From Nodularia sp. LEGE 06071 (GTDB lineage Bacteria > Cyanobacteriota > Cyanobacteriia > Cyanobacteriales > Nostocaceae): a stretch of DNA of 64,000 nt. A program made the position numbers and the translations under genes. The notes under the pieces were generated by a model. That model was not told the DNA's origin, searched no databases, and saw only the letters and a list, made by a program, of their open reading frames with translations. Location of the stretch: the NCBI RefSeq assembly GCF_015207755.1, contig NZ_JADEWH010000009.1, forward strand, positions 62,001 to 126,000, given 5' to 3'. The number at the start of each line of letters is the position of its first letter. The stretch's first letter is position 1. Of the stretch, positions 941 to 5,800 are shown one piece after another.

Positions 941-1567
941 TTAACTCAAAATTTTGCTGAAGTTTTTTAAAATACTTAGGACTTCGTACAATTCATTTTT
1001 TCTTTTTAATAAGGTAAATTGGTCAGACAGAGCATATTGGAGAATATTTTCTTGAATAAACTTTAGAAAAATAAACTCACTACCATTAGTCACACATCCA
1101 AACACAGGTTTTTCTGGATGAGGATTAGCTAACATATAAGTCAGTGCTTGGGGTATAGCTTCTAAAAGAGAAAAACTAGAGCGTTTAGACTCAATTACCA
1201 GTAACCAGAATTGTTCTTGAATTACCAGAACATCAATTCTACCTCGAATAATTTCTCCCTTATCCTCCGCCGAAATTTCAATTGATTGTTCACTTCTCAT
1301 AAAAAAAGGTTCGTCATAAAACCCAGCCAGATTCAGCAAAGGTGATAAAACAACTAATTTTACTGTTTCTTCGGATAAAGGAGGATATTTTGCTAAACGC
1401 AGAAAATGAGATTTTATTTTGTCTAACTCTTGTTTTTCTAAATCTGTAATTCCTGGTAAATTTTCCAACCATTCGGGAAAAAATGACTCATTTTTAGCCT
1501 GTTGCAGACCAAATTTTTCTTCTAAATAGGCGAGTCCAACATTTTGCGCTTGAATAAATTGAACCAT
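941..1567 (-). CDS. HsdR_N-like PD-(D/E)XK nuclease-fold protein, paralogue 2
   Basis: A 208-residue protein resembling the N-terminal nuclease domain of type I restriction R subunits. The motif order is Asp in GRIDVLVI, then Glu-x-Lys in IESKRSSF, then Gln-x3-Tyr in PQALTYM, as in the HSDR_N branch of PD-(D/E)XK enzymes. No helicase or specificity domain follows, so it is a stand-alone domain. It shares order, length and most motifs with the next gene upstream (1610-2269), so the two are a tandem duplication. It lies three bases ahead of the cysteine desulfurase start. Substrate and role are unknown; such short HsdR_N-like proteins are common in filamentous cyanobacteria. Confidence 0.75.
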   Translation of the reverse strand: MVQFIQAQNVGLAYLEEKFGLQQAKNESFFPEWLENLPGITDLEKQELDKIKSHFLRLAKYPPLSEETVKLVVLSPLLNLAGFYDEPFFMRSEQSIEISAEDKGEIIRGRIDVLVIQEQFWLLVIESKRSSFSLLEAIPQALTYMLANPHPEKPVFGCVTNGSEFIFLKFIQENILQYALSDQFTLLKRKNELYEVLSILKNFSKILS

Positions 1568-1609
1568 AGTTTTCTCACACTATATAATTGGCTTAATTAG
1601 AACAAACAA

Positions 1610-2269
1610 TCAGCTAAAGATTTTACCTAGTTTCATTAAAATTTGTAAAACTTTATATAATTCATTTTCACGTCTATATAAAGTAAATCTATCAGATAAG
1701 GCATATATTACGGCTTTATTTTGTTTAATTATTTTGATAAATTGGAAATCTTCCCCATTCATGATTAACGAATATACAGGATAATTAGAAGTAGGCGCAG
1801 CTATCATGTAAGTAAGTGCTTGAGGTATTGCTTTCGCTAAAGAAAAACTAGAGCGTTTAGATTCTATAATCAATATCCATAACTTATTTTGGATAACTAA
1901 TACATCAATTTTACCCTTAATAATTTCCTTAGATGTTTCTACTGCTTCTTCAAGCTTAATAATAATGGTTTCACTAATCTCTATAGATTCTTCTGTGGCG
2001 ATGTGAAAAGGATAACGATAAAACCCAGCTAAATCTAGTAAGGGAGACAGGACTACCATTTTTACTGCTTCTTCTAGAAGAGGAGTAGTTTCAAATAAGC
2101 TGAGATAGTGACTTTTAACTCTATCTAAGTATTGCTTTTCTAATTCGGAGATTTCAGGTAAAGAGTCAAACCACTCTGTAAAAAATTGCTGAACTTCAGA
2201 TTTCTCTAAAGCAAAATTTTCTTTTAAGTAAGCGAGGGTGATATTTTGTGCTGGAATAACTTGAACCAT
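1610..2269 (-). CDS. HsdR_N-like PD-(D/E)XK nuclease-fold protein, paralogue 1
   Basis: A 219-residue relative of the gene at 941-1567, starting MVQVIPAQNI against MVQFIQAQNV in its neighbour. It carries the same Asp (KIDVLVI), Glu-x-Lys (IESKRSSF) and Gln-x3-Tyr (PQALTYM) core. It has a roughly ten-residue insertion, rich in Glu and Ile, just before the catalytic core. It is the first gene of a likely three-gene minus-strand transcription unit ending in the cysteine desulfurase. The 42-bp gap to the next gene holds no obvious terminator. Biochemical function is unknown; an intact nuclease centre is inferred from the motif only. Confidence 0.75.
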   Translation of the reverse strand: MVQVIPAQNITLAYLKENFALEKSEVQQFFTEWFDSLPEISELEKQYLDRVKSHYLSLFETTPLLEEAVKMVVLSPLLDLAGFYRYPFHIATEESIEISETIIIKLEEAVETSKEIIKGKIDVLVIQNKLWILIIESKRSSFSLAKAIPQALTYMIAAPTSNYPVYSLIMNGEDFQFIKIIKQNKAVIYALSDRFTLYRRENELYKVLQILMKLGKIFS

Positions 2270-3059: not shown

Positions 3060-4406
3060 ATGATTAAAATGTCATCTGAATTTAACTTTTTCCAACAGTG
3101 GTATCCTCTCTCACCTGTAGAAGATATTGACCCCACACGACCAACTTCAGTCACTCTTTTAGGAATTCGTTTAGTTATCTGGAAGCCTAAATCGTCTGAG
3201 ACTTACCAGGTATTTTTAGACCAATGTCCCCACCGTCTCGCTCCTCTGAGTGAAGGACGTGTTGACGAAAAAACTGGTAATTTAATGTGTAGTTATCATG
3301 GTTGGCAATTTGATTCTCAAGGGATTTGTACTCACATTCCCCAAGGAGAGAATCCAGAAATTGTTACTAAAAATCAAGATAAATTCTGTGTAATTTCACT
3401 ACCAGTTCGCCAAGCTAATGATTTACTTTGGGTTTGGCCTGATGCTAAATCGGCAGAAGCAGCCGCCAATACGCCGTTACCACTTTCACCTCAAGTAGAT
3501 GCTGATAAGGGATATGTTTGGTCTTCTTATGTCCGCGATTTGGAATATGACTGGCAAACTTTAGTAGAAAATGTCGCAGACCCTAGTCATGTACCTTTTA
3601 CCCATCACGGGGTACAGGGTAAGAGAGAATATGCTACACCCATACTTATGGAGGTTGTGCAATCAACACCAAAGTTAATTGAGGTCATGACTGCTGGACG
3701 CTTCAAAACTACTATCACTTTTGAACCTCCTTGTCGGTTAGAGTATGCTATCAACTTTGGCGACTCTGGAGATAAAAAAATGGGACTGGTGACTTACTGC
3801 ATTCCGGTGTCTCCAGGTAAATCAAGAATTGTTGCCCAATTTCCCCGTAACTTTGCTAAAAAACTGCATAGGTTGACACCCCGGTGGTGGAGTCATATCA
3901 ATACCCGTAATCTGGTGCTGGATGGAGATATGATTGTTTTACATCAGCAAGAAAAGTTTCTACAACAAAGACAAGCAGTTGAAAGCTGGAAAACTATCTA
4001 CAAGTTACCGACAAGTGCAGACCGTTTGGTAATTGAGTTTCGTAATTGGTTTGATCAGCATTGTTTCGGTCAGCTACCGTGGAGAGAAGTGGGAATTATT
4101 GTTCCACCCAGCCCGCAAATTAATGATAACCGTTCTGTGTTGCTGGATCGTTATTCACAACATACCCAGCATTGTAGTAGTTGTCGCAATGCGCTAAAGG
4201 TTATACAGCGCTTACAGGTGGGACTTTTAATCTACAGCACAAGTATTATTGCTGGTGTGGCTTTACTTCCTGATGCACTGAGAATTAAGTTGGGTTTACC
4301 TTTGGTAATTACGGCTGCTTTAAGTATGGCTGCTTACTCTTGGCTGAAATTCCGGCTAATTCCTAAGTTCTACTTTGTAGACTATATCCATCCAGAAAAA
4401 CTATAG
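3060..4406 (+). CDS. Rieske non-haem iron oxygenase, PaO/Tic55-like
   Basis: Membrane-associated Rieske oxygenase of the pheophorbide a oxygenase-like family, 448 residues. The Rieske centre is C56-P-H58 and C77-S-Y-H80. The mononuclear iron site follows in NVADPSHVPFTHH (Asn/Asp, then two His). The C-terminal half has the CSSC motif typical of this family (about residue 375) followed by two hydrophobic segments, as in PaO and Tic55 proteins. Plant relatives act in chlorophyll breakdown, chlorophyll b synthesis or plastid import; the cyanobacterial substrate cannot be read from sequence. ATG codons at 3060 and 3069 are both plausible; no clear ribosome site distinguishes them. Confidence 0.88.
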   Translation: MIKMSSEFNFFQQWYPLSPVEDIDPTRPTSVTLLGIRLVIWKPKSSETYQVFLDQCPHRLAPLSEGRVDEKTGNLMCSYHGWQFDSQGICTHIPQGENPEIVTKNQDKFCVISLPVRQANDLLWVWPDAKSAEAAANTPLPLSPQVDADKGYVWSSYVRDLEYDWQTLVENVADPSHVPFTHHGVQGKREYATPILMEVVQSTPKLIEVMTAGRFKTTITFEPPCRLEYAINFGDSGDKKMGLVTYCIPVSPGKSRIVAQFPRNFAKKLHRLTPRWWSHINTRNLVLDGDMIVLHQQEKFLQQRQAVESWKTIYKLPTSADRLVIEFRNWFDQHCFGQLPWREVGIIVPPSPQINDNRSVLLDRYSQHTQHCSSCRNALKVIQRLQVGLLIYSTSIIAGVALLPDALRIKLGLPLVITAALSMAAYSWLKFRLIPKFYFVDYIHPEKL

Positions 4407-4407
4407 T

Positions 4408-4496
4408 TTTATCCCAATTCTATGTGAGGCTGCGCTATATTTTACCCTCAGAATAGAATTCTGGGGCTATACACACAAAGCCCACCTACGTGGGCT
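4408..4496. terminator. Repeat fragment and hairpin after the Rieske gene
   Basis: AGCCCAC (4479-4485) pairs with GTGGGCT (4490-4496) around a four-base loop and is followed by AATTAAT. It is a probable intrinsic terminator with a weak U tract. Just upstream, 4408-4450 resembles the left end of the element at 24583 (CCAATT, then TGTGAGGCTGC). Confidence 0.5.
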
Positions 4497-4544
4497 AATT
4501 AATGAGGCGCATTTTCATCAATCAGGAATTATGAATTAAAAAAT

Positions 4545-5387
4545 ATGCGACGTGATTTTACTAACCGCGATGAATTGATAGCTTACCTGCGGGAACAATT
4601 CCCCAATGCGGTAGAAAGGGATGATCATATTAGTGAAACTGTGGGAGGACGTAAGGCGGCTGAGAAAGCACTACAAAAAGTTAATCCTGTGGATTACGCA
4701 AAAACACGTAATTCTTTAACTGGCGCTGTAACGAGACTTTCGCCCTATATTCGTTATGGGGTTTTAAGCTTGCGAGAAATACGGGATCATGTCCTGGAAA
4801 AAGTAGAACACCCCAATGATGCTACTAAACTGATTAATGAATTGGGCTGGCGTGACTATTGGCAAAGATTATATGTCAAACTAGGCGATCGCATCTGGGA
4901 AGATCAAGAAGAATATAAAACTGGGTACACCCCAACAGATTACGCTGACAAACTACCAGCAGATATCACCGCCGGGACTACAGGAATGGTTTGCATTGAT
5001 AGTTTTAGCCATGAATTAGGTCAAACTGGCTACTTACACAACCATATCCGGATGTGGCTAGCCGCTTACATTGTCCACTGGCGGCGCATTCGTTGGCAAG
5101 CCGGAGCCAAATGGTTTCTAGAACACCTGCTAGATGGTGACCCAGCAAGTAATAATATGTCATGGCAGTGGGTCGCCAGCACTTTTAGCCATAAACCTTA
5201 TTTTTTCAATCGTGAGAACCTAGAACGCTATACCCAAGGAGTTTATTGTCGCCAATGTCCCCTTTACGGTCATTGTGATTTTGAAGGTAGCTACGAAGAA
5301 TTAGAACAACGACTATTTCCCCAAGGAGAATTTACCAAGAAACCCAATAGTCAAAGCTGGCAAAGAGGCAAAAAAAGTAAAAAATGA
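4545..5387 (+). CDS. Photolyase/cryptochrome FAD-binding domain as a separate protein, with Fe-S-type cysteines
   Basis: A 280-residue protein that is only the helical FAD domain of the photolyase/cryptochrome family; the N-terminal alpha/beta domain is absent. Family blocks are RLSPYIRYG (64-72), ELGWRDYW (99-106), GTTGMVC (144-150), GYLHNHIRMW (162-171) and DGDPASNNMSWQW (197-209). It has four Cys at 150, 235, 238 and 244. The first lies just before the GY-x-H helix and the others follow the FNREN segment, in the order C, CxxC, C known for [4Fe-4S] bacterial photolyases/cryptochromes. A basic tail ends the protein. Its stop overlaps the next start (ATGA), so coupled translation with the antenna-like partner is likely. 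It could repair DNA or act in signalling. Confidence 0.85.
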   Translation: MRRDFTNRDELIAYLREQFPNAVERDDHISETVGGRKAAEKALQKVNPVDYAKTRNSLTGAVTRLSPYIRYGVLSLREIRDHVLEKVEHPNDATKLINELGWRDYWQRLYVKLGDRIWEDQEEYKTGYTPTDYADKLPADITAGTTGMVCIDSFSHELGQTGYLHNHIRMWLAAYIVHWRRIRWQAGAKWFLEHLLDGDPASNNMSWQWVASTFSHKPYFFNRENLERYTQGVYCRQCPLYGHCDFEGSYEELEQRLFPQGEFTKKPNSQSWQRGKKSKK

Positions 5388-5800
5388 GTAAACCAATCGT
5401 TTGGGTACATGGAGACTCCCTGAGTCCCTACAACCCCGCATTACAAGAATACCCCGAAGCCCCAGCCATCTGGGTATGGGATGAAGCCTTAATTGCAGAA
5501 TGGCAACTCAGCCTCAAACGCATCACATTTATTTATGAATGCTTATTAGAATTACCCGTGATCATTCGCCGTGGTAATGTGGCACAAGAAGTTTTAGCAT
5601 TTGCCCAAGAAAACCATGCTGATTTAGTCGTAACATCCACCAGTCCCAGTCCCAGATTTAATCAGATTTGCGACCAAATAGAAAAAACCTTAACCCTAGA
5701 AACCTGGGAAACAGAACCATTCCTGGAATACGACGGTCACATCGACCTCAAAAGATTCTCCCGTTATTGGAAAATAGCCGAAAAACACCTCTTTAACTAA
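5384..5800 (+). CDS. Photolyase antenna-like alpha/beta domain as a separate protein
   Basis: A 138-residue protein that looks like the N-terminal Rossmann-like domain of photolyases. HGDSLSPYNPAL matches the usual RRDLRxxDNPAL start, followed by APAIWVWD, the helix FIYECLLEL, VIIRRGN, EVLAFAQENHADLVVTS and a C-terminal acidic/aromatic tail. It overlaps the FAD-domain gene by four bases (ATGA), so the pair probably makes a two-subunit enzyme with the gene order reversed relative to the domain order of ordinary photolyases. Whether it binds a folate, deazaflavin or lumazine antenna cannot be seen. The gene is followed by a short array of GCTCCCT heptamers before tldD. Confidence 0.75.
   Translation: MSKPIVWVHGDSLSPYNPALQEYPEAPAIWVWDEALIAEWQLSLKRITFIYECLLELPVIIRRGNVAQEVLAFAQENHADLVVTSTSPSPRFNQICDQIEKTLTLETWETEPFLEYDGHIDLKRFSRYWKIAEKHLFN

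What the first reader, a model, noticed from the sequence alone, without database searches (positions are those of the whole stretch)
4545..5800. Photolyase split into two coupled genes, FAD domain first, with a four-Cys Fe-S-type pattern
Seen: the upstream gene encodes only the photolyase FAD domain, the downstream gene only an antenna-like alpha/beta domain, and start and stop overlap as ATGA. Gene order is the reverse of the domain order in ordinary photolyases. Cys150, 235, 238 and 244 have spacing 85/3/6. From memory of the family, [4Fe-4S] photolyases/cryptochromes (PhrB/CryB type) have Cys at about 88/3/13, with the first Cys at the same distance before the GY-x-H helix. Inference: a two-subunit, possibly Fe-S-containing flavoprotein for DNA repair or light sensing that deserves its own family name.
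Basis: partly seen in the sequence, partly recalled or inferred. Interest (0 to 1): 0.85.

Follow-up and report, generated by a model that had tools for sequence, protein, structure and literature searches.

The report
Two-gene iron-sulfur photolyase, already described
Two overlapping cyanobacterial genes seem to encode the two halves of one light-driven DNA-repair enzyme; this arrangement is already published, and what is added here is that, in the genomes examined, the two halves are nearly always present together even when their genes lie far apart, and that the active site resembles that of enzymes for the commonest kind of UV damage.

Summary
Window 4545-5387 (A, 280 aa) is a photolyase FAD domain; 5384-5800 (B, 138 aa) is a diverged photolyase antenna-type domain; they overlap as ATGA; Cys150/235/238/244 are spaced 85/3/6. 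It is not new in kind. Haney et al. 2022 (PMC9426592, sections read) describe it as phr4/phr5 in marine Synechococcus and Cyanobium: reversed domain order, the same four Cys, a fused form (phr6), UV-C phenotypes, and a note on Nostoc punctiforme. A 2012 paper (PMC3441193, passages read) proposed a heterodimer. Added here: (1) 122 of 130 distinct A sequences keep all four Cys. (2) In 386 cyanobacterial genomes strong A and B matches occur together in 81, A alone in 1, B alone in 2; in 23 of the 81 they are unlinked. (3) Pairs or fusions also occur in Chloroflexota, Alphaproteobacteria and Deinococcus. (4) Varying gaps and frames speak against a general programmed frameshift. (5) The Cys align with FeS-BCP (6-4) photolyases, but the active site is CPD-type, against the published (6-4) guess. 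Activity, cluster and complex were not measured.

The parts
4545..5387 (+). gene A: stand-alone photolyase FAD domain (280 aa), Phr4-like / SPL-like
5384..5800 (+). gene B: stand-alone photolyase antenna-type alpha/beta domain (138 aa), Phr5-like
5384..5387 (+). ATGA: start of B overlaps stop of A (translational coupling inferred)
   Evidence: a -4 spacing is found in 23 of 88 adjacent pairs
4992..4994 (+). Cys150 codon, proposed [4Fe-4S] ligand
5247..5249 (+). Cys235 codon, proposed [4Fe-4S] ligand
5256..5258 (+). Cys238 codon, proposed [4Fe-4S] ligand
5274..5276 (+). Cys244 codon, proposed [4Fe-4S] ligand
4839..4850 (+). E99 and W102, equivalent to E283 and W286 of the A. nidulans CPD photolyase (equivalence from the alignment; their role recalled)
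   Evidence: E in 117 of 122 (Q in 5), W in 122 of 122
5040..5054 (+). N166 and M170, equivalent to N349 and M353; PF04244-type rows have His and Leu here
   Evidence: N in 122 of 122, M in 115 of 122 (L in 7); comparison rows
5163..5171 (+). W207 and W209, equivalent to W390 and W392
   Evidence: 122 of 122 each
5753..5770 (+). RFSRYW stretch near the C-terminus of B, conserved in the B family; resembles the YxVYGPFW stretch after the antenna domain of class I photolyases by eye only

Best explanation
A and B are the two subunits of one photolyase. A binds FAD and, very probably, a [4Fe-4S] cluster held by Cys150/235/238/244; B is the detached antenna-type domain that docks on A and may carry a light-harvesting chromophore. 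Light excites the flavin (directly or through B), and reduced FAD gives an electron to a pyrimidine dimer in a pocket of class I CPD type. Shown by sequence: domains, Cys, CPD-type residues, co-occurrence, natural fusion. Inferred: the cluster, docking, chromophore, substrate (CPD, possibly in single-stranded DNA), light dependence.
Confidence: 0.68

Rival explanations
1. It is a (6-4) photolyase, as Haney et al. suggest from the Fe-S Cys and the UV-C phenotype.
For: Four Cys shared with PF04244-type (FeS-BCP) rows; UV-C-only phenotype of phr4; the window genome has no PF04244 gene, so the pair could fill that role there.
Against: The His-His-x-x-Arg-Leu stretch of the seven PF04244-type rows is absent; A has His-Asn-x-x-Arg-Met as in six class I rows. 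53 of 82 genomes with A also have PF04244, so it does not simply replace PhrB.
Confidence: 0.15
2. It is a cryptochrome-like light or redox sensor, not a repair enzyme.
For: phr4/phr5 protection in E. coli was light independent.
Against: Substrate-pocket residues fully or nearly conserved; UV-C survival phenotype and UV induction of orthologues.
Confidence: 0.1
3. A and B are made as one polypeptide by programmed ribosomal frameshifting (possibility raised by Haney et al.).
For: Short, conserved junction in marine Synechococcus; fused genes exist.
Against: In 88 adjacent pairs the spacing (B start chosen by script) runs from -47 to +2279 and all three relative frames occur (45/28/15); in 23 of 81 genomes the genes are unlinked.
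Confidence: 0.04
4. A is an SPL-type enzyme that works alone, and B is an unrelated accessory protein.
For: Xu et al. report a Rhodococcus SPL with FAD, Fe-S and CPD activity (species and details recalled; the class itself seen in passages of citing papers).
Against: A and B co-occur with three exceptions in 386 genomes and in 24 of 24 others, and are fused in 6 of 130 distinct A loci.
Confidence: 0.1

Closest known systems
Phr4/Phr5 and fused Phr6 of marine Synechococcus/Cyanobium (Haney et al. 2022, PMC9426592, sections 5, 8, 9, 10 read; heterodimer proposed in PMC3441193, passages read)
   Same: FAD-domain gene then antenna-domain gene, reversed domain order, four Cys with the same 85/3/6 spacing (C169/254/257/263 in RS9916), fused versions, same complement noted in Nostoc punctiforme.
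   Different: Here the junction is an ATGA overlap, as in 23 of 88 adjacent pairs, not the 7-bp spacer reported for marine strains. The active site points to CPD, where Haney et al. guess (6-4).
Short photolyase-like proteins, SPL (Xu et al. 2021; paper not held, seen through passages of PMC9178010, PMC9649867 and PMC9498864)
   Same: FAD domain without N-terminal alpha/beta domain; close to CPD photolyases; Fe-S reported.
   Different: SPLs are described as lacking the alpha/beta domain; here that domain is a separate, co-occurring gene. That A is an SPL by clade was not tested.
FeS-BCP (PhrB/CryB, prokaryotic 6-4 photolyases)
   Same: Four Cys in the same alignment columns.
   Different: FeS-BCP rows have a PF04244 N-terminal domain on the same chain and a His-His active site; A has neither.
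NewPHL / Phr7 (Emmerich et al. 2020; paper not held, seen through PMC9426592 and PMC13274461)
   Same: FAD domain first, further domain C-terminal; CPD-type residues in three rows taken as Phr7-like by their length and source.
   Different: No Cys set; the C-terminal region shows no significant profile match to B, one of five rows excepted.
Class I CPD photolyase
   Same: Most FAD-site and the CPD-site residues.
   Different: One chain, antenna first, no Cys set.

Membership tests
Phr4/Phr5 | stand-alone FAD-domain gene followed by stand-alone photolyase alpha/beta-domain gene | tested here: met
Phr4/Phr5 | four Cys with 85/3/6 spacing | tested here: met
   reference positions
Phr4/Phr5 | UV-C survival phenotype | not testable with these tools
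   published for RS9916 only
SPL | no alpha/beta antenna domain on the same chain | tested here: met
SPL | falls in the published SPL clade | not tested
   paper not held and no named SPL sequence in hand
SPL | CPD repair activity, FAD and Fe-S in the purified protein | not testable with these tools
   needs biochemistry
FeS-BCP (prokaryotic 6-4 photolyase) | four cluster Cys | tested here: met
FeS-BCP (prokaryotic 6-4 photolyase) | His-His-x-x-Arg-Leu active-site stretch | tested here: not met
   window has HNHIRM; all seven PF04244-type rows have HHIERL
FeS-BCP (prokaryotic 6-4 photolyase) | PF04244 N-terminal domain | tested here: not met
   no PF04244 match in the window genome; 1 of 23 B members hits PF04244 (E 0.0028), 19 hit PF00875
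NewPHL / Phr7 | FAD domain N-terminal of a further domain | tested here: met
   gene order A then B; fusions
NewPHL / Phr7 | C-terminal Z-domain | tested here: inconclusive
   no significant hhalign match of B to five such C-terminal regions taken together (E 0.37); one of them, L047, alone gives E 3.5e-4
Class I CPD photolyase | CPD pocket residues E283, W286, N349, M353, W392 | tested here: met
Class I CPD photolyase | antenna and FAD domains on one chain, antenna first | tested here: not met
Cryptochrome DASH | curated model TIGR02765 over cut-off | tested here: not met
   104.5 bits against 317.05; the model spans both domains, so this alone is a weak test

The most novel reading that the evidence does not exclude
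Fe-S short photolyases that look antenna-less are half-enzymes whose antenna domain is a separate subunit acting in trans, often from a distant locus. The same module is found split or fused FAD-first in four phyla, and dispersed in cyanobacteria. If so, the argument that SPLs are ancestral because they lack the antenna domain weakens, and an enzyme combining a [4Fe-4S] cluster with a class I-type CPD pocket becomes directly testable as a link between CPD and FeS-BCP lineages.
Probability: 0.45. Interest if true: 0.6.

Novelty: already known. Interest (0 to 1): 0.38.

Why it matters
The pair itself is known, so its discovery value is modest. The added results bear on two questions left open in the paper that I read: whether the two ORFs are made as one protein by frameshifting (unlinked genes and mixed frames say no, in general), and whether the enzyme is a (6-4) or a CPD photolyase (the active site says CPD). 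They also question the description of short Fe-S photolyases as lacking an antenna domain, which underlies a proposal about the family's ancestor.

Tried and rejected
A tree of 48 FAD domains kept class I, PF04244-type and NewPHL-like rows each on one side of a branch, but did not resolve where A attaches: long branches, weak central nodes, and the Cys-bearing A rows needing 3 changes. One Cys-bearing A row (L057, Deinococcus QL22) even joined the PF04244-type rows with starred support (95/93). I draw no ancestry from it.

A first mixed alignment (A3) placed B rows on the FAD domain and was dropped; A4 replaced it.

A match of B to the NewPHL Z-domain was sought and not found, apart from L047. 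Phage records gave 10 matches (E <= 1e-5), all below 60% identity and none covering 80% of A.

Rows left out of counts: 18 genomes have a weaker A match (1e-24 to 5e-29) in frames of 378-406 aa, taken as Phr7-like; none of them has a B match. Seven A rows identical to others were dropped; the window stayed in twice, and one search corrects this (130 distinct, 122 with four Cys).

I wanted to test whether the Rhodococcus SPL has a B partner; no actinobacterial genome could be reached, so this is open. That SePhrC of S. elongatus is an A orthologue with an unlinked B is only a guess from genome size and gene complement of an unnamed genus (G089, G179, G245, G385) and is not counted as a result.

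Full report
WHAT IS THERE. A (4545-5387, 280 aa) matches the FAD-binding domain of photolyases (PF03441, E 2.4e-24) and, in solved structures, residues 61-222 match a photolyase FAD domain (best E 9.1e-20). B (5384-5800, 138 aa) is a sub-cut-off match to the photolyase antenna-type domain PF00875 (E 6.8e-4) and had no convincing solved relative by sequence (best E 0.42). Family-level tests support the assignment: 19 of 23 B members hit PF00875 at E <= 0.01; profile comparison with six class I antenna domains gives probability 93.8 and E 1.8e-7 over 73 columns; and the B profile has nine weak matches (5e-9 to 9e-6) in photolyase-length frames, N-terminal of the FAD domain in the two compared (G183, G366). 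The window genome holds one other photolyase gene (PF03441 and PF00875 in one 492-aa frame) and no PF04244 gene.

PRIOR ART. Haney et al. 2022 (PMC9426592; outline, sections 5, 8, 9, 10 and passages read; [quoted passage not shown] They leave open frameshifting against two proteins, and guess (6-4) activity. Disruption of phr4 lowered UV-C survival 20-30 fold but had no UV-B effect; in E. coli, phr4/phr5 gave UV-C protection that did not differ significantly between light and dark. A 2012 paper (PMC3441193, passages read) already proposed a heterodimeric photolyase. Xu et al. 2021 on SPLs is not held; what I say of it comes from passages in PMC9178010, PMC9649867 and PMC9498864 and from memory. 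Emmerich et al. 2020 is not held. Papers were searched; the library holds open-licence PubMed Central papers only.

CYSTEINES. Of 130 distinct A-family sequences, window included, 122 have all four Cys, with spacing 85/3/6 in 109, 85/3/7 in 10, and three singletons (one search counts the window twice). The eight others are L044 (frame broken before the CxxC; its remainder with CxxC and a further Cys lies in another frame), L050 (partial copy with three of four in view) and six sequences lacking the set (L046, L047, L048, L049, L058, L059; L048 keeps the first Cys only). The family was gathered with a profile built mostly from Cys-bearing members, so Cys-less relatives are under-sampled. In an alignment with seven PF04244-type rows (PF04244 confirmed in all seven), six have Cys in all four columns; the seventh, from genome G137, lacks them, as do the six class I rows.

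ACTIVE SITE. Against A. nidulans photolyase (equivalences), Y228, L243, S244, R287, N349, D380, D382 and N386 are kept in 122 of 122; T240 is Val or Ile, S241 is Thr or Ser, A385 is Ser in 121. W280 has no counterpart in that alignment. The CPD-pocket residues (their role recalled) are E283 (117 of 122, Q in 5), W286 (122), N349 (122), M353 (115, L in 7) and W392 (122). The PF04244-type rows have Q, W, H, L, W. W390 and W367 of the reduction chain are invariant; W314 is not conserved, though Tyr133, two residues on, is present in 121 of 122. So A combines FeS-BCP-like Cys with a class I-like CPD pocket. This contradicts the published (6-4) guess but is not proof of activity.

A AND B OCCUR TOGETHER. 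In the same 386 cyanobacterial genomes (same handles), strong A matches (E <= 3e-54) occur in 82 and strong B matches (E <= 1.3e-35) in 83: both in 81, A only in G026 (a Cys-less long protein), B only in G340 (match starts at the first base of a contig) and G383 (B in two broken pieces), neither in 302. The lines were drawn after seeing the gaps in the lists: the next A matches are at 5e-29 (18 genomes, Phr7-like frames, no B), the next B matches at 5e-9. The Fisher p (4e-80) ignores shared ancestry and is descriptive only. Of the 81, 58 have the genes within 5 kb (at most 1.8 kb) or fused, and 23 have them unlinked, 12 of these on one contig 25 kb to 4.9 Mb apart and 11 on different contigs. 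In a second set, 24 of 24 genomes chosen because they hold A have B (in one, G386, only a partial match); 17 of these had no adjacent B in the fetched locus, though L129 has it just beyond my limit and L065, L110 and L128 were cut short.

NEIGHBOURHOOD. Among 130 distinct A loci, 88 have B downstream on the same strand (L044 and the partial copy L050 included), 6 are fused, 1 has B just beyond my limit and 35 show none in the stretch held (for 31 of these at least 1.4 kb downstream was held). Spacings run from -47 to +2279, 23 are -4, and all three relative frames occur (45/28/15); the B start was chosen by script, so single spacings may be off. A programmed frameshift is therefore not the general mechanism. 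In this window the ATGA overlap suggests translational coupling (inference).

DISTRIBUTION. The pair or fusion is also in Chloroflexota and Alphaproteobacteria genomes (classified) and on Deinococcus plasmids: D. wulumuqiensis, D. psychrotolerans and strain AJ005 fused, strain QL22 split with a 4-base overlap. Several loci are metagenome bins, and the one named Tatlockia (L111) groups with cyanobacteria and may be mis-binned.

VERDICT. Observation confirmed; interpretation partly supported; arrangement already published. Most likely a two-subunit FAD and [4Fe-4S] photolyase with a CPD-type pocket.

Noticed in passing
L061, L066, L072, L084, L087, L106, L132 upstream of A: In seven Chloroflexota loci a PF04244 (PhrB-type) photolyase gene lies upstream of A on the same strand, within about 1.4 kb, so two kinds of Fe-S photolyase may share an operon.
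   Followed up: partly
G383:C1:3526673-3527069: A same-family genome without a strong A match has B broken into two pieces in different frames (107 and 97 aa), as expected if B decays once A is lost.
   Followed up: no
L050 (G282:C1:288500-299000): A same-genus genome carries a second, partial copy of the A-B pair: A from residue 171 on, B to position 119.
   Followed up: no
L044 5274-6277: In G239 the A gene is interrupted: its C-terminal part with CxxC and a further Cys is in another frame; sequencing error or pseudogene.
   Followed up: no
window 941-2269, - strand: Two adjacent ORFs (208 and 219 aa) look alike by eye and may be a tandem duplication.
   Followed up: no
L047 (G026) 4316-5641: A 441-aa Cys-less protein with the FAD domain first and a C-terminal region only weakly like B; it may bridge this family and NewPHL.
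   Followed up: partly
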